Under the pieces are notes generated by a model that worked only from the letters and a program-made list of their open reading frames with translations, was not told the origin of the DNA and did no database searches. Positions 9,787 to 15,310 of a DNA stretch of 21,696 bases are shown piece after piece. How positions within the stretch are numbered: position 1 is the stretch's first letter; each line of letters begins with the position of its first letter. Source of the stretch: Bryobacterales bacterium (GTDB lineage Bacteria; Acidobacteriota; Terriglobia; Bryobacterales; Bryobacteraceae); contig DOZZ01000048.1 in NCBI GenBank assembly GCA_003517725.1, forward strand, positions 3,317 to 25,012, in the 5' to 3' direction. The translations under genes and the position numbers were made by a program.

Positions 9787-10193
9787 CGGAATCAAACGAA
9801 TACTCGACGGCTGATTTTGTAAAGGTTGGCGAAGGCGGACGCGGAACCGAGGCCCTGGCGGCGGAGCCACCCACTGGAGCGGCGGGGGCTCGCATGGCGC
9901 GAGAACCCGAGCGGGAAGCCGCGGCCGCGCTCTTCGCGGAAGATGAGACCCAAAGCTTTCGCGGTAAATGGACCGACATTCAGGCCGAGTTCGTGGACGA
10001 GCCCAAGAAGTCGGTCGAGAAGGCGGATCACCTGGTGGCCGAAACCATCAAGCGCCTGGCCGAGATCTTCGCGGAGGAGCGCAACAAGCTGGAACACGAG
10101 TGGTCGCGCGGTGAAGATCGCGTGTCGACCGAAGATTTACGAGTAGCGTTGCGGCGGTACCGGTCGTTCTTCGACCGGCTGTTGTCGGTCTAG
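9783..10193 (+). CDS. Small soluble protein, paralogous to the C-terminal part of the upstream gene product
   Basis: This 136-residue protein starts within the stop of its neighbour (ATG 9783-9785, TGA 9784-9786). The first ~50 residues are low-complexity, rich in Gly, Ala, Glu and Pro. The remainder aligns by eye with the upstream product: FRGKWTDIQAEFVDEPKKSV against FAAEWKAAQARFVDSPKAAI, DHLVAETIKRLA against DRLVGEVMKTRG, and VSTEDLRVALRRYRSFFDRLL against TTEELRTAMVHYRTLFEDLL. It lacks the membrane helix. The pair may form a heteromer with one anchored and one soluble partner (inference). Its last 4 bases overlap the end of convergent moaA. Confidence 0.7.
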   Translation: MTESNEYSTADFVKVGEGGRGTEALAAEPPTGAAGARMAREPEREAAAALFAEDETQSFRGKWTDIQAEFVDEPKKSVEKADHLVAETIKRLAEIFAEERNKLEHEWSRGEDRVSTEDLRVALRRYRSFFDRLLSV

Positions 10194-11185
10194 CCGCCGA
10201 TTGAATACATCGGACGTGGCGGGGCTACGAAACGAGAGCTATTGATTTCGTGGCCCAGCCACTTTTCCTTCACATTTCCCCTGATACAGTCGGCAATCTG
10301 AGCATCGGTGCCGCCGCCGCGCAGCAGCGTGCGCACGTCGGCTTCTTCGATTGCGAACAGGCAGTAGCGCAGTTTGCCTTCAGACGTCAGGCGCAGGCGG
10401 TTGCAGTTCAGGCAAAACGGCTTGGTTACCGAAGCGATGAAACCCACCGAGCCGCCGCCGTCGGCATAGCGGTATTCGGTGGCGGGCGCGCGCGGATCGG
10501 CGTCGCGCACCGGCAGCAGGGGAGCGATTTCGCGCGAGAGCGTCTCGATCATCTGGTCGGCGGTCAGCACGCGGCCGCGTTCCCACAGGTGTTGCGCATC
10601 GAGCGGCATGAACTCGATGAAGCGCGGCTCAAAGCCGTTCTCGCGGCAGTAGCGCGCCATCGGAACCAGATCCGGCTCGATCAGATCTTTCACCGCGACC
10701 ACATTAATCTTGATGGGCCCGAAGCCCAGGCGCCGGGCCGCATTGATACCGCGCAGCACCGCCGGCAGATCGTCGCGGCGCGTGATTTGCTGAAATCGCG
10801 CGCGATCCAGGGTATCGAGGTGAATGTTCAGCCTGCGCAGCCCCGCGTCGTAGAGCGCGGGCGCAAACTCTTCGAGCAGTACGGCATTCGTGGTCAATGC
10901 CAAGTCGCGTATACCGGGGACTTGCATCAGCCGCTCGATCAACACCGGCAAACCCCGTCGCAGCAGCGGTTCGCCGCCGGTCACGCGGATCTTAGTGATG
11001 CCCAGTTCCGCGGCAATGCGGGCCACGCGTTCGATCTCTTCGAATGTCAGCAGCTCTCCGCGCGGCATGAACTTCACCCCGGTTTCGGGCATGCAGTAGA
11101 AGCAGCGAATGTTGCATCGGTCGGTAACGCTGATCCGCAGGTTGTCGTGGAGGCGTCCGAAACCGTCGATCAGCGGGGCGCTCAC
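10190..11185 (-). CDS. moaA: GTP 3',8-cyclase (molybdenum cofactor biosynthesis, radical SAM)
   Basis: This 331-residue protein starts at the GTG whose first base is 11185, overlapping the nadA stop (GTGA). A longer open frame continues upstream to 12142, but that part is nadA read in another frame. The N-terminal cluster site CNIRCFYC has Cys24, Cys28 and Cys31 (CxxxCxxC), binding the radical SAM [4Fe-4S]. A second cluster site near the C-terminus has Cys258, Cys261 and Cys275 (CxxC-x13-C), where GTP binds. The chain ends in Gly-Gly, as in functional MoaA. It converts GTP to the 3',8-cyclo intermediate in molybdopterin synthesis. Length and motifs are normal. Downstream moa genes are not in the window. 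Confidence 0.95.
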   Translation of the reverse strand: MSAPLIDGFGRLHDNLRISVTDRCNIRCFYCMPETGVKFMPRGELLTFEEIERVARIAAELGITKIRVTGGEPLLRRGLPVLIERLMQVPGIRDLALTTNAVLLEEFAPALYDAGLRRLNIHLDTLDRARFQQITRRDDLPAVLRGINAARRLGFGPIKINVVAVKDLIEPDLVPMARYCRENGFEPRFIEFMPLDAQHLWERGRVLTADQMIETLSREIAPLLPVRDADPRAPATEYRYADGGGSVGFIASVTKPFCLNCNRLRLTSEGKLRYCLFAIEEADVRTLLRGGGTDAQIADCIRGNVKEKWLGHEINSSRFVAPPRPMYSIGG

Positions 11186-12111
11186 CGCAGGGCCAGCATG
11201 CGCTCGATGGGCAGCCGCGCGCGTTCCATCAACTCGGCCGGCAGTTCCACGCGGGGCTCCAGGTTGCTGAGGCAATCGCGCAGCTTCTCGAGCGTGTTCA
11301 GCCGCATGTAAGGGCACTCGCTGCAATTGCAGTTCTCGTTGGCGACGAAGTAAAACTGCTTGTCGGGCGAGTCGCGGCGCAGGGAATGCTGCACGCCGCT
11401 TTCGGTCATGATGATGAACTCGCGCGCCGGGCTCTTGGCCGCGTAATCGATCAGCGCCGAGGTCGAGCCGATGAACTTGGCATACCGCAGCACGCTCTCC
11501 GGGCATTCTGGATGGGCGATCACTACGGCGTCGGGATGCGCGGCTTGCATGTCCAGCAGACGGCGCGCCGGAAAGGTCGCGTGCACGATGCAGGCGCCCT
11601 GCCAGATCTTCATGTTCTGGCGGCCGGTTTGCTGCTTGACGTAATTGCCCAGATTGCGGTCCGGCAAAAACAGGATGGTCTTGTCGGCCGGAATCGAATT
11701 CACCACCTGAACCGCGTTGCGCGAGGTGCAGATGATGTCGCTCTCGGCCTTCACTTCGGCCGCGGTGTTGATGTAGCTGACGATGACGTGGTCCGGATTG
11801 CGCCGCCGGTACTCGCGAATGGGCTCCGGCGGACAGCCTTCCACCAGCGAACAACTGGCCGCGCGGTCGGGCACCACGACCGTCCGGTGAGGGTTCAGGA
11901 TCTTGGCCGTCTCGGCCATAAACCACACGCCGCAGAACGCGATCACGTCGCCTTCGAAGCTCTGGGCTTTGCGCGCCAACTCCAGGCTGTCGCCAATGAC
12001 GTCGGCTAGTTCCTGGATCTCGGTTTCCTGGTAGTGGTGCGCCAGGATGATGGCGCGGCGGTCGCGCTTGAGTTCCTGAATCTCTTCGGTGATGGTTGGC
12101 GTGGCCAGCAT
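11182..12111 (-). CDS. nadA: Quinolinate synthase A (NAD biosynthesis)
   Basis: This 309-residue protein has the three cluster cysteines of NadA: Cys87 (ASCSLVEGC), Cys174 (GACIVH) and Cys266 (CNCSECPYM). Their spacing agrees with E. coli Cys113, Cys200 and Cys297; the first two are 87 apart in both. The motifs AHHYQ near residue 24 and FMAETAKILNPHRTV near 64-78 are also typical. It condenses iminoaspartate with dihydroxyacetone phosphate to quinolinate on a [4Fe-4S] cluster. The expected partner nadB is not adjacent. moaA follows with a 4-nt GTGA overlap, so the two Fe-S enzymes are likely co-translated. Confidence 0.95.
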   Translation of the reverse strand: MLATPTITEEIQELKRDRRAIILAHHYQETEIQELADVIGDSLELARKAQSFEGDVIAFCGVWFMAETAKILNPHRTVVVPDRAASCSLVEGCPPEPIREYRRRNPDHVIVSYINTAAEVKAESDIICTSRNAVQVVNSIPADKTILFLPDRNLGNYVKQQTGRQNMKIWQGACIVHATFPARRLLDMQAAHPDAVVIAHPECPESVLRYAKFIGSTSALIDYAAKSPAREFIIMTESGVQHSLRRDSPDKQFYFVANENCNCSECPYMRLNTLEKLRDCLSNLEPRVELPAELMERARLPIERMLALR

Positions 12112-12166: not shown

Positions 12167-13507
12167 GTGCGCGTTCTGCTCATTTCGACCTACGAACTCG
12201 GCCGCCAGCCTTTCGGACTAGCCTCGCCCGCGGCCTGGCTGCGTCGCCGCGGACATCAGGTGGCCATGGTTGACTTGTCCTGCGAGACTCTTTCGCGCGC
12301 GCAAGTGGCGCACGCCGAAGCCATCGCTCTATATTTACCGATGCACACGGCCACCCGTACGTCGCTAAAATTAATCCCGAACCTGCGCGAAATCAACCCA
12401 ACGGCGCGTTTGTGCGCCTACGGCTTATATGCGTCGATGAACGCGGCGCACCTGAAAAAGCTGGGAGTCGAGACCATCATCGCCGGAGAATTCGAGCAGC
12501 GCCTGGTGGATTGGGTCGAAGACAATCCGCCGGCCGGCGAGGCGATGGACCGGCTGCTGTTCATCACGCCGGATCGCGCCGGGCTGCCGCCGTTGAACCG
12601 CTACGCCAAACTGCTGGGCATGGGCGAGCCGCGCCGCGTGGGCTACACCGAGGCCAGCCGCGGCTGCAAACATCTATGCCGCCATTGCCCGGTAGTGCCG
12701 GTGTATCAGGGGACGTTTCGCGTGGTGCAGCGCGAGGTGGTGCTGGCCGATATAAGGCAGCAGGTCGCGGCCGGCGCCCGGCACATCACCTTCGGCGATC
12801 CCGATTTCTTCAATGGCATTGGCCACGCGCTGCCGCTGGTGCGCGCGCTGCATCGGGAATTTCCGGCGCTCACCTACGACGTCACCATCAAAGTGGAACA
12901 TCTGCTGCAGCATCGCGGTGCGCTGCCGGAGCTGAAGGCCACGGGCTGCCTGTTTATCGTCAGCGCTGTCGAATCGCTTGACGATGCCGTATTGGCGCGT
13001 CTCGCCAAAGGTCATACCCGCCAGGATTTCTTCGAGGCCGTGGATCTGGTGCGCGCAGCTGGCCTGCAACTGGCGCCCACCTTCGTCACGTTCACGCCGT
13101 GGACATCCCGTCAGGATTTTCTGCATCTGATGGGAACGATCGACCAGCTCGATTTGGTGGAGGCCGTCGCTCCAATCCAACTTGCGATACGGCTGCTGAT
13201 CCCCTCTGGTTCGCTGCTGCTGGAGCTCGACGAAGTAAAACGGCTGGTCGACGGTTACGATGCCGAAAAACTGGCGTGGACCTGGCAGCATCCGGATCCT
13301 TCGATGGACCGCCTTTGCGCCGATATTCAGAAGTTGGTGCGGCACAAGCCGAAAGCATCGCGCGCCGAGCTCTTCGAGGATATCTGGCGCCTCGCGGGGG
13401 GCTCGCGGCCGGATTTTGTGACGCCGGACCGCGCGACCGTGCCGTACCTGAACGAGCCCTGGTACTGTTGAGCGGAGCCTGAGGAAGAGCCGGTGGCTCT
13501 TGTGTAA
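12167..13507 (+). CDS. CUAEP-tail radical SAM selenoprotein with N-terminal B12-binding-like domain; TGA at 13469-13471 read as selenocysteine
   Basis: The GTG start at 12167 gives 434 residues to the in-frame TGA, or 446 if the TGA is decoded as Sec. Residues 1-120 resemble a cobalamin-binding Rossmann domain (MRVLLISTYELGRQPFG), although no DxHxxG is visible. The radical SAM site is RGCKHLCRHC with Cys167, Cys171 and Cys174. The last codons before the TGA encode NEPWYC; after it come Ala-Glu-Pro-Glu-Glu-Glu-Pro-Val-Ala-Leu-Val and TAA. Cys-Sec-Ala-Glu-Pro is the CUAEP tail of a known radical SAM family with Sec or Cys (CCAEP) members. A hairpin with a GGU loop follows at 13485-13501, as expected of a SECIS. 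The enzyme is predicted to modify a substrate through a 5'-deoxyadenosyl radical; the substrate is unknown. The ATP-grasp gene starts within its extended 3' end. Automatic annotation would drop the tail. Confidence 0.88.
13485..13501 (+). promoter_or_regulatory. Candidate bacterial SECIS hairpin for selenocysteine insertion
   Basis: A perfect 7-bp stem pairs AAGAGCC (13485-13491) with GGCTCTT (13495-13501) around a GGT triloop (13492-13494). The loop starts 21 nt after the last base of the TGA. The E. coli fdhF SECIS presents a GGUC loop at a similar distance (about 18-19 nt, from memory), and SelB reads the loop guanines. No T-tract follows, so it is not a typical terminator. The hairpin lies inside the extended coding region, as bacterial SECIS elements do. 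Confidence 0.8.
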
Positions 13508-14705
13508 ACCACGCATTCTGCTGGTGGCCGCGACCACCGGCTACCAGGTCCGCTCCTTCGATGCCGCCGCGCGGCAGCTCGGTGTGGAACTGTCGCTGGC
13601 CACGGATCGCTGCCACATCTTGGAAGATCCGTGGGCGGACCGCGCCATCCCGGTGCGCTTTGAAGATCCCGCGCAGTCGGCGGTTCAGGTGCAGGGCCGG
13701 TTCGACGGCATTCTGGCGGTGGGAGATCGCCCGGCATTGCTTGCGGCGCATTTGGCTGAACGCCTCGGTATGAAGTTTCACGGTCCGGCAGCCGTGGCTG
13801 CGTGCGGTGATAAGCACGTCTCTCGAGAACTGTTTGCCGCCGCTGGCCTGCCGACTCCCGCGCACTGCATGCTTGGGGTTCACGATGAGACGTTCGTCGA
13901 TCTGGCGTACCCCTGCGTGCTGAAAGCGCTGCATCTATCGGCATCACGCGGTGTGATCCGAGCCGACGATCTTGGGCAATTTTGCGCCGCCCGCGACCGT
14001 ATTGCCGCTATTACGCGCGAGCCTCACCTGCAGGTGGAAACCTACATCCCGGGGCGCGAGTTCGCTCTGGAGGGCCTGATGCGCAGCGGCCGGCTGCAAT
14101 GCCTGGCGATCTTTGAAAAGCCCGACCCGCTCGACGGCCCGTTCTTTGAAGAGGCCATCTACGTGACGCCGCCGCGCGAAAGTCCCGCCGCGCAACAGGC
14201 CATCGTCGAAGCCACGCAGCGCGCCGTCACGGCGCTGGGTCTGAGCGACGGGCCGATCCACGCCGAGATGCGTGTCAACGCGAGCGGCGTCTGGATGCTG
14301 GAGGTAGCGGCGCGTCCCATAGGCGGGCTGTGCGCGCAGACTTTGCGCTTCGAGCCAGGCGCGCTCTCGCTCGAAGCTCTGCTGTTACGACATGCGCTGG
14401 GTGAAGACACCTTAGAGTTCATCCGCGAGCCGCAGCCATCCGGCGTCATGATGATTCCGGTGCCCGGACACGGGATTCTGCAAAGTGTCGAGGGTGTCGA
14501 ACAGGCGCGCGCTGTGCCGGGGATCGAAGATGTCGTGATCACCGCCAAGCTAGGCGAGGAGCTGATTCCGCTGCCTGAGGGCGCCAGCTATCCCGGCTTT
14601 CTCTTCGCGCGAGCCGATACCGCCGATGCCGTGATCGATGCCCTCCGGCGATCTCATGCGGCGCTCTCGTTTAGCCTCACGGCCAAGCTCAAAGTTTTGG
14701 TCTGA
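13500..14705 (+). CDS. ATP-grasp amino-acid/peptide ligase-like protein
   Basis: The TTG at 13500 is the first plausible start in this frame and gives 401 residues; the next, GTG at 13524, would remove part of the first strand (PRILLVAATTGYQ). The middle has ATP-grasp features: Lys142 in CVLKALHLSASRG, Glu180/Glu188 around VETYIPGREFALEG, and a metal site with Glu256 (HAEMRVN), Glu268 and Arg272 (EVAARPIGG). The C-terminal ~90 residues (IPVPGHGILQSVEGVEQARAVPG onward) resemble the second C-terminal domain of L-amino acid ligases. Such enzymes join a carboxylate to an amine through an acylphosphate using ATP. The start overlaps the Sec-extended radical SAM gene by 8 nt, and the pair likely belongs to one pathway of unknown product. 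Its start codon lies in the 3' arm of the SECIS hairpin, so coupled translation is likely. Confidence 0.8.
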   Translation: MCKPRILLVAATTGYQVRSFDAAARQLGVELSLATDRCHILEDPWADRAIPVRFEDPAQSAVQVQGRFDGILAVGDRPALLAAHLAERLGMKFHGPAAVAACGDKHVSRELFAAAGLPTPAHCMLGVHDETFVDLAYPCVLKALHLSASRGVIRADDLGQFCAARDRIAAITREPHLQVETYIPGREFALEGLMRSGRLQCLAIFEKPDPLDGPFFEEAIYVTPPRESPAAQQAIVEATQRAVTALGLSDGPIHAEMRVNASGVWMLEVAARPIGGLCAQTLRFEPGALSLEALLLRHALGEDTLEFIREPQPSGVMMIPVPGHGILQSVEGVEQARAVPGIEDVVITAKLGEELIPLPEGASYPGFLFARADTADAVIDALRRSHAALSFSLTAKLKVLV

Positions 14706-14720: not shown

Positions 14721-15053
14721 TCACTCGAAAATCGGCGATATCCTCGCCAGCACCTCGTCCATGACCGCGCCCGGAATCATCTCCAGCTTCCTGCCGCCGC
14801 GGGCGACGAGATCGAGCGCGCGGGGCTGGTCGCACCGGACAACGCCCGTGGTTTTGGCGCCGGCGCCTGTCAATGGTACGGCGAAACCGGCCGTCCGCGC
14901 GAAATTACCGCCGCTCGTGATCGGAAGAACTATCGGGAGCTTCGTGATCCGGTTGAAGACCTCGGGCGACACGATAAGCACCGGACGGCGGCCCTTTTGC
15001 TCGTGCCCCGACGTAGGATCGAGGCTGACGAGCCAGATTTCGCCGCGCTTCAT
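14721..15053 (-). CDS. MazF/PemK-type toxin (endoribonuclease)
   Basis: This 110-residue protein begins MKRGEIWLVSLDPTSGHEQKGRRPVLIVS, the beta-barrel start of PemK/MazF toxins with the conserved G-EIW and RPVLIVS motifs. It also has the core segment VVRCDQPRALDL near residues 72-83, which is the family's RNA-binding strand with Cys/Asp and the Q-x-R element. MazF toxins cleave mRNA at short motifs, stopping translation until the antitoxin neutralises them. Length is normal. Its ATG shares one base with the stop (TAATG) of the antitoxin gene upstream, the usual antitoxin-first order. Confidence 0.9.
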   Translation of the reverse strand: MKRGEIWLVSLDPTSGHEQKGRRPVLIVSPEVFNRITKLPIVLPITSGGNFARTAGFAVPLTGAGAKTTGVVRCDQPRALDLVARGGRKLEMIPGAVMDEVLARISPIFE

Positions 15054-15310
15054 TAGATGAGCTCGCCGCCCACGGGTTTACTATCGAGCCATGCCTGCTC
15101 TTCCCTGGCGCGCGGCGCTTTGGCATCGCATTGAGCCAGCAGTTCGTTCAAGGTATAACGATGCCGCGGCTGCGGCTCGACGATGAGACGTCCGCTTTCG
15201 ACCGCGATGCCGACCTTAGCGCCTGGCTGCAAGTGCAGAATATCGAGCAGCGCGGGCGGCACGGCCAGCATGACCGAGCCCCCGACCTTGCGCAGATTGG
15301 TGATGTGCAT
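15053..15310 (-). CDS. MazE/AbrB-like antitoxin
   Basis: This 85-residue protein has an N-terminal swapped-hairpin AbrB/SpoVT domain: LRKVGGSVMLAVPPALLDILHLQPGAKVGIAVESGRLIVEP covers residues 6-46. The C-terminal part (HRYTLNELLAQCDAKAPRAREEQAWLDS) is charged and probably disordered until it wraps around the toxin. AbrB-type antitoxins bind DNA as dimers and repress their own operon. Its ATG lies directly next to a palindrome (15311-15332), a likely operator. It is divergent from metY. Confidence 0.9.
   Translation of the reverse strand: MHITNLRKVGGSVMLAVPPALLDILHLQPGAKVGIAVESGRLIVEPQPRHRYTLNELLAQCDAKAPRAREEQAWLDSKPVGGELI

What the first reader, a model, noticed from the sequence alone, without database searches (positions are those of the whole stretch)
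13463..13507. Radical SAM gene with in-frame TGA encoding a CUAEP selenocysteine tail
After the Cys codon (13466-13468) the frame has TGA, then Ala, Glu, Pro, and goes on to a TAA at 13505-13507. The Cys-Sec-Ala-Glu-Pro tail is the hallmark of a radical SAM family with Sec and Cys (CCAEP) versions. A conventional gene call ends 12 residues short and misses a selenoprotein.
Basis: partly seen in the sequence, partly recalled or inferred. Interest (0 to 1): 0.95.

Follow-up and report, generated by a model that had tools for sequence, protein, structure and literature searches.

The report
Selenocysteine-tailed radical SAM enzyme gene
This bacterium carries a radical SAM enzyme gene with an in-frame TGA just before its true end, which is predicted to be read as the rare amino acid selenocysteine; it is a new member of a family already catalogued (CUAEP/CCAEP-tail), whose reaction I found nowhere described and which likely resembles an enzyme that builds arsenic-containing antibiotics.

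Summary
The radical SAM gene (GTG 12167) reads ...Trp-Tyr-Cys-TGA-Ala-Glu-Pro-...-TAA, with TGA at 13469-13471 and TAA at 13505-13507. It scores 605 bits (cut-off 500) against NCBIfam NF040546, CUAEP/CCAEP-tail radical SAM (seleno)protein, so the kind is known. Selenocysteine is strongly supported. Of the best 80 named related loci 65 have TGA and 15 a Cys codon there. A hairpin about 13 nt after the TGA is kept in 71 of 80 distinct TGA tails, 7.3 expected. In one genus 7 of 7 scored TGA genomes have SelB or tRNA-Sec, and 6 of 6 Cys genomes neither. The window's genome holds SelA and SelB in pieces and a SelD with its own in-frame TGA; tRNA-Sec was not found in this 81%-complete assembly. Function is open. 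The nearest model of known function is ArsL (279 bits, below its cut-off), which ends in a Cys-Cys tail; an ATP-grasp ligase gene adjoins in 30 of 67 CUAEP loci and lies in both ArsL clusters read. I infer an ArsL-like transfer with a Cys-Sec tail.

The parts
12167..13507 (+). radical SAM gene of the CUAEP/CCAEP family, 446 residues with TGA read as selenocysteine
   Evidence: translation; NF040546 605.4 bits (cut-off 500); PF04055 44.5 bits
12665..12688 (+). CX3CX2C motif (Cys167, Cys171, Cys174) expected to hold the [4Fe-4S] cluster
   Evidence: sequence; the three Cys are invariant in 15 and 50 aligned family members
13466..13471 (+). Cys434 (TGT) followed by the recoded TGA (Sec435): the vicinal Cys-Sec pair
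   Evidence: TGA/TGC/TGT exchange at this codon
13472..13504 (+). tail AEPEEEPVALV after the TGA; Ala-Glu-Pro kept while third codon positions vary
   Evidence: codon table over 72 distinct TGA tails; AEP in 80 of 80 named loci
13485..13501 (+). predicted bacterial SECIS hairpin AAGAGCC-GGU-GGCUCUU, 13 nt after the TGA
   Evidence: 29-nt piece chosen around it: -9.5 kcal/mol, z -2.28; conserved with compensating changes in relatives
13500..14705 (+). ATP-grasp ligase gene (TTG start, overlapping the selenoprotein stop by 8 nt), recurrent partner
   Evidence: PF13535 85.7 bits and LAL_C2 56.2 bits; adjacency in relatives

Best explanation
This gene encodes a radical SAM enzyme of the catalogued CUAEP/CCAEP family whose in-frame TGA is predicted to be read as selenocysteine under direction of the hairpin just behind it, so that the protein would end in a Cys-Sec pair likely used in its reaction. 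Steps shown by sequence comparison: the open frame through TGA, Cys at the same codon in relatives, the conserved hairpin, and Sec machinery genes in the genome. Inferred: SelB with Sec-tRNA decodes the TGA at the hairpin (established bacterial mechanism, not measured here). Inferred with much lower confidence (about 0.35): the enzyme works like its nearest relative of known function, ArsL, that is, it cleaves SAM to a 3-amino-3-carboxypropyl radical and joins it to a soft acceptor held by the Cys-Sec tail, and the neighbouring ATP-grasp ligase couples the resulting amino acid to another one. The confidence given below is for the selenocysteine reading and family membership.
For: Family: NF040546 605.4 bits, cut-off 500. 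Cys/Sec exchange: 65 TGA, 12 TGC, 3 TGT in 80 named loci. Protein-level constraint after the TGA: the tail finder required Ala and Glu codons and found a tail in 111 of 111 loci given; Pro, not required, is kept in 72 of 72 distinct TGA tails; third positions vary. RNA-level constraint: stem of 6 or more pairs in 71 of 80 distinct TGA tails, against mean 7.3 and maximum 16 in 1000 synonymous recodings; in Cys tails 5 of 26 (null mean 2.0, maximum 7). Compensating pairs among the 68 tails that fold in the main register: position 20-30 A-T 61, C-G 5, G-C 2; 18-32 A-T 50, G-T 11, G-C 5, C-G 1, T-T 1; without that selection the six pairs stand in 60 to 72 of 72 tails each. Machinery: SelB broken by a run of N, SelA on two contig ends, SelD 360 bits over cut-off with a TGA that aligns to the first Cys of AGCGCK in the solved selenide, water dikinase 3u0o. 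Co-occurrence: SelB or tRNA-Sec in 91 of 93 TGA genomes and 12 of 19 Cys genomes; one of the two TGA exceptions is the window's genome itself, whose SelB is in pieces. Genus g64: TGA 7 of 7 with SelB or selC, Cys 6 of 6 with neither, the Cys tails shortened and without the hairpin. ArsL likeness: window 279 bits to the ArsL model, two ArsL proteins 364 and 366 bits to the CUAEP model, Cys-Cys at the ArsL C-terminus, an ATP-grasp gene in both ArsL clusters looked at.
Against: No tRNA-Sec found in this assembly: the three best hits are tRNA-Ser (only 150 of 800 first-look candidates were scored) and a selC pattern search found none. The window hairpin alone is weak evidence: P = 0.049 in synonymous recodings, and 39- and 48-nt pieces prefer another pairing (z -1.3 and -1.0). 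12 of 19 Cys genomes still have Sec machinery, so Cys also serves where Sec is available. For function: the ArsL score is below the curated cut-off, identity is 32-34%, I saw no arsenic gene among the 25 most recurrent neighbour clusters (read by eye), and 35 of 53 TGA loci with 1.5 kb downstream lack the ATP-grasp gene within 600 nt (6 of the 35 have it elsewhere in the locus).
Confidence: 0.93

Rival explanations
1. The TGA is a normal stop; the conserved stretch behind it is a regulatory hairpin between the radical SAM gene and the ATP-grasp gene.
For: A hairpin is conserved there, and in the window it lies just before the ATP-grasp start. selC was not found in this assembly.
Against: Ala-Glu-Pro is kept in frame in 80 of 80 named loci with variable third positions; Cys homologues read straight through to the same AEP; the hairpin is kept in 26 of 29 TGA loci with no ATP-grasp gene in the stretch held.
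Confidence: 0.03
2. The TGA is a nonsense mutation or an assembly error in a Cys-type gene.
For: A single base separates TGA from TGC or TGT.
Against: TGA stands at this place in 65 of 80 named loci, and 93 of 112 genomes of the order that could be scored have the TGA form.
Confidence: 0.01
3. TGA is read as tryptophan or another amino acid through a changed code.
For: The frame is open through TGA.
Against: The exchange partner is a Cys codon in 15 of 15 named loci without TGA; 7 of 15 likely window genes that I picked end in TGA, among them NadA, which ends where its family model ends; Sec machinery is present.
Confidence: 0.01
4. Selenoprotein as claimed, but the Cys-Sec tail is a mobile redox pair (compare the Gly-Cys-Sec-Gly tail of mammalian thioredoxin reductase, recalled) that carries electrons or resolves a disulfide, and the enzyme is not an aminocarboxypropyl transferase.
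For: The modelled tail is of low confidence, as flexible tails are (pLDDT under 50 at 438-446); a vicinal Cys-Sec pair near the C-terminus fits; the nearest solved folds (AprD4, OxsB, MgmA, TsrM) catalyse other reactions.
Against: The closest family of known function by sequence is ArsL, not those enzymes (279 bits against 40.1 or less).
Confidence: 0.35

Closest known systems
NCBIfam NF040546, CUAEP/CCAEP-tail radical SAM (seleno)protein
   Same: whole length, score over cut-off, TGA before AEP at the C-terminus; 7 of the 120 listed homologues carry this name from NCBI
   Different: nothing that sets it apart; a detail of the window is that the ATP-grasp start overlaps the tail stop by 8 nt, as in a few relatives
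ArsL (NF040542), radical SAM enzyme of arsinothricin biosynthesis
   Same: 32-34% identity over a common architecture, vicinal Cys pair at the C-terminus, ATP-grasp gene in 2 of 2 clusters read
   Different: below the ArsL cut-off; tail is CUAEP instead of RCCLKC, behind about 36 extra residues; no arsenic gene seen among its recurrent neighbours (by eye)
AprD4 and the radical SAM enzymes OxsB, MgmA, TsrM
   Different: 14-19% identity; the reactions in their titles differ; I did not compare their C-termini
Radical SAM selenoproteins TIGR04167 and TrsS (NF045646)
   Same: radical SAM enzymes listed as selenoproteins in a 2026 review (PMC13188914, passages)
   Different: other families; NF040546 and CUAEP do not occur in that review's main text

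Membership tests
NCBIfam NF040546 (CUAEP/CCAEP-tail radical SAM) | score over the curated cut-off of 500 bits | tested here: met
   605.4 bits, profile 1-467 of 468
NCBIfam NF040546 (CUAEP/CCAEP-tail radical SAM) | C-terminal C-(U/C)-A-E-P motif | tested here: met
   CUAEP at residues 434-438
NCBIfam NF040546 (CUAEP/CCAEP-tail radical SAM) | radical SAM CX3CX2C motif | tested here: met
   C167, C171, C174, invariant
Bacterial selenoproteins | in-frame TGA aligned with Cys in homologues | tested here: met
   65 TGA, 15 Cys codons in 80 named loci
Bacterial selenoproteins | SECIS hairpin shortly after the TGA with G in the apical loop (recalled rule) | tested here: met
   stem of 6 or more pairs in 71 of 80 distinct TGA tails; window stem of 7 pairs, loop GGU; a longer window piece folds otherwise
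Bacterial selenoproteins | SelA, SelB, SelD in the genome | tested here: met
   SelD 360 bits over cut-off; SelB (131.9 and 120 bits) and SelA (216.8 and 181.7 bits) each in two pieces, broken by N or contig ends, each piece below the cut-off alone
Bacterial selenoproteins | tRNA-Sec (selC) in the genome | tested here: inconclusive
   not found; assembly 81% complete
Bacterial selenoproteins | selenium in the protein | not testable with these tools
   needs mass spectrometry or 75Se labelling
ArsL (NF040542) | score over the curated cut-off of 450 bits | tested here: not met
   279 bits
ArsL (NF040542) | RCCLKC C-terminus | tested here: not met
   tail is WYCUAEP...
ArsL (NF040542) | transfer of 3-amino-3-carboxypropyl to As(III) | not testable with these tools
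   needs the purified enzyme
Cobalamin-binding radical SAM enzymes | B12-binding domain | tested here: inconclusive
   PF02310 28.2 bits, cut-off 32.1; the database copy of this protein carries a precomputed PF02310 (P0002); fold of residues 1-120 matches B12-domain and response-regulator chains alike

The most novel reading that the evidence does not exclude
The CUAEP family is a selenocysteine-tipped sister of ArsL: a 3-amino-3-carboxypropyl transferase whose Cys-Sec tail grips a soft metalloid or chalcogen and makes a new organo-element amino acid, which the ATP-grasp ligase turns into a dipeptide. In genomes arranged like this window, reading through the TGA also brings the ribosome to the overlapping start of the ligase gene, so that ligase output would rise with selenium supply.
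Probability: 0.2. Interest if true: 0.75.

Novelty: new member of a known kind. Interest (0 to 1): 0.38.

Why it matters
A gene call with TGA as stop cuts this protein at the Cys and loses the residue that is probably its most reactive one. Even the Thermomicrobium roseum record, named after the family, ends at the Cys although TGA, AEP and a 6-pair hairpin follow. The family is common in the window's order (over the cut-off in 111 of 257 genomes), and I found no reaction assigned to it. The tie to ArsL, the shared kind of neighbour and the within-genus switch between Sec and Cys forms give a concrete test of what the selenium is for.

Tried and rejected
Stop-codon, nonsense-mutation and changed-code readings were considered and rejected (see rivals). 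Single-sequence folds of longer tail pieces gave no clear support (z -1.0, 39 nt, z -1.3); the 29-nt piece that does (z -2.28) was chosen around the hairpin. The real support is the comparison across relatives. Rfam with gathering cut-offs found nothing in the window; ARAGORN found no tRNA there. A search for selC by family and by pattern in the own genome failed. L007, a weak tRNA-Sec hit, was not called as a tRNA by ARAGORN; by eye its anticodon reads TAA, not TCA.

Papers. CUAEP occurs in none of the open-licence PubMed Central papers held (where 10 of 1,384 papers were listed); CCAEP in five unrelated ones; arsinothricin with radical SAM and selenocysteine in none. Searches gave listings in whose titles I saw no account of the family. 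Two papers by Haft and co-authors, cited in PMC13188914 and the likeliest to name the family, are not held, so absence from print is not claimed. PMC13188914, PMC9312934, PMC8552651 and PMC12013277 were seen as passages only.

Limits. The position of the tail relative to the iron-sulfur cluster could not be measured, because model coordinates are not given; the cluster loop (167-173) and the tail end (438-446) are both under pLDDT 50. Rows dropped before counts: L067 and L119 of 111 tails, plus L165 of 132 (contig ends), then identical tails merged. In one search genomes whose match does not reach the tail (G204, G220, G226, G234) and second copies (G157, G231) were left out. The tail state there was read from stop counts; the codon itself was read for 19 of 19 Cys and 32 of 93 TGA genomes, always in agreement. 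The thresholds for SelB (E below 1e-63) and selC (E below 1e-9) are mine; three g64 Cys genomes have unexplained SelB-like hits of 1e-49 to 1e-56. Fisher's P of 4e-5 treats related genomes as independent.

Full report
What is there. On the + strand a gene starts at GTG 12167 and runs to a TGA at 13469-13471; read through that TGA it continues for 11 codons to TAA 13505-13507, giving ...PYLNEPWYC-U-AEPEEEPVALV. The protein scores 605.4 bits against NCBIfam NF040546, CUAEP/CCAEP-tail radical SAM (seleno)protein, cut-off 500, covering 1-467 of 468 profile positions, and 44.5 bits against Radical_SAM of Pfam. The family is therefore catalogued and named; 7 of the 120 homologues listed in the protein search carry that name from NCBI (which scored a capped 7999 candidates).

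Is TGA read as selenocysteine? Four lines agree. First, Cys homologues: in the best 80 of 471 related named loci the codon is TGA in 65, TGC in 12, TGT in 3, followed by Ala-Glu-Pro in 80 of 80. Second, protein constraint behind the TGA: Ala, Glu and Pro are kept in 72 of 72 distinct TGA tails while their third codon positions vary (the tail finder required Ala and Glu codons, but found a tail in 111 of 111 loci given). Third, RNA constraint: 71 of 80 distinct TGA tails form a stem of six or more pairs with a 3-6 nt loop in the expected place; 1000 sets of synonymous recodings gave 7.3 on average and 16 at most. Cys tails show it in 5 of 26 (null 2.0, maximum 7), a weak excess that fits relics such as L031 and L037, judged by eye. 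Changes compensate: pair 20-30 is A-T, C-G or G-C, and pair 18-32 A-T, G-T, G-C or C-G with one mismatch, in the 68 tails of the main register. A second register occurs in some relatives (GGGACC-AGTT-GGTCCC). The window's own hairpin is AAGAGCC-GGU-GGCUCUU at 13485-13501; taken alone it is only weakly significant (P 0.049), and longer pieces fold otherwise. Fourth, machinery: the window's genome (326 contigs, 81% complete) has SelD over its cut-off with an in-frame TGA, at the first Cys of the AGCGCK motif of the solved enzyme 3u0o, SelB broken by a run of N, and SelA on two contig ends. The pieces of SelA and SelB are each below cut-off alone.

The open point is selC. In the own genome the three best hits of the tRNA-Sec model are tRNA-Ser (150 of 800 candidates scored), and a pattern from relatives' selC genes does not occur. 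Over the order, 228 of 257 genomes have a tRNA-Sec over cut-off and 205 of 257 a SelB over cut-off. Among 112 genomes whose tail could be scored, SelB or selC was found in 91 of 93 TGA genomes and in 12 of 19 Cys genomes. The two TGA exceptions are the window's genome, with its SelB in pieces, and G237, 64% complete. Another 14 TGA genomes have SelB at my threshold without selC, so a missed selC is common in these drafts.

A natural experiment. In genus g64 thirteen genomes could be scored: seven have TGA and six Cys. Seven of seven TGA genomes have SelB or selC (G173 only selC, G176 only SelB); six of six Cys genomes have neither, and their tails are shortened to CCAEPAPQV or CCAEPLPV with the hairpin gone. 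Loss of the Sec system and the switch to Cys go together there. Against a simple story, 12 other Cys genomes keep the machinery, and three of the six g64 Cys genomes have SelB-like hits of E 1e-49 to 1e-56 that I did not resolve.

Inference. I commit to an ArsL-like reaction, with the Cys-Sec pair holding a soft acceptor and the ligase then using the new amino acid; I give this about 0.35 as a function claim. A redox role of the tail is about as likely. It is not a member of ArsL: cut-off and tail were tested and not met.

A detail of the window. The ATP-grasp start (TTG 13500) overlaps the selenoprotein's stop by 8 nt, whereas a ribosome that stops at the TGA would end 28 nt upstream. Inferred starts that overlap the tail's stop also occur in L118, L128, L136 and L138 of the 30 adjacent loci; in 2 of the 30 no start was found. 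Two of these four are Cys forms. Translation of the ligase may thus be coupled to read-through; this is untested, and the hairpin does not depend on the ligase: it is kept in 26 of 29 TGA loci without that gene in the stretch held.

Verdict. Observation confirmed, interpretation supported, kind already known. The remaining interest lies in the unassigned chemistry and the Sec/Cys switch.

Noticed in passing
L018:468-1391 (G000 contig C257): SelD of the same genome carries its own in-frame TGA at the active-site Cys, a second predicted selenoprotein.
   Followed up: yes
L144:7330-7430 (Thermomicrobium roseum plasmid NC_011961.1): The annotated CUAEP/CCAEP-tail protein ends at Trp-Phe-Cys, but TGA, Ala-Glu-Pro and a 6-pair hairpin follow: probably a truncated annotation of a selenoprotein outside Acidobacteriota.
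   Followed up: partly
window 10190-12111: moaA and nadA lie on the opposite strand, divergent from the radical SAM gene; moaA recurs in 19 and nadA in 15 of 81 loci, always on that strand (contig ends not corrected for; the window's own moaA is not in the 19).
   Followed up: partly
L068:10826-11152 and 23 other loci: A bacterial Fe(2+) trafficking gene (PF04362) is found near the radical SAM gene in 24 of 81 loci, 22 of them on the other strand (the family was scanned for one member only).
   Followed up: partly
window 14721-15310: Two small ORFs on the - strand look by eye like a MazF-type toxin and MazE-type antitoxin pair; no family search was run.
   Followed up: no
G231 (C102 and C190), G157 (C747 and C138): Two copies of the family in one genome: G231 one with and one without TGA, G157 both with TGA.
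   Followed up: no
G178, G179, G184: Intermediate SelB-like hits (E 1e-49 to 1e-56) in Cys-type genomes in which no tRNA-Sec was found; unresolved paralogue or decaying SelB.
   Followed up: no
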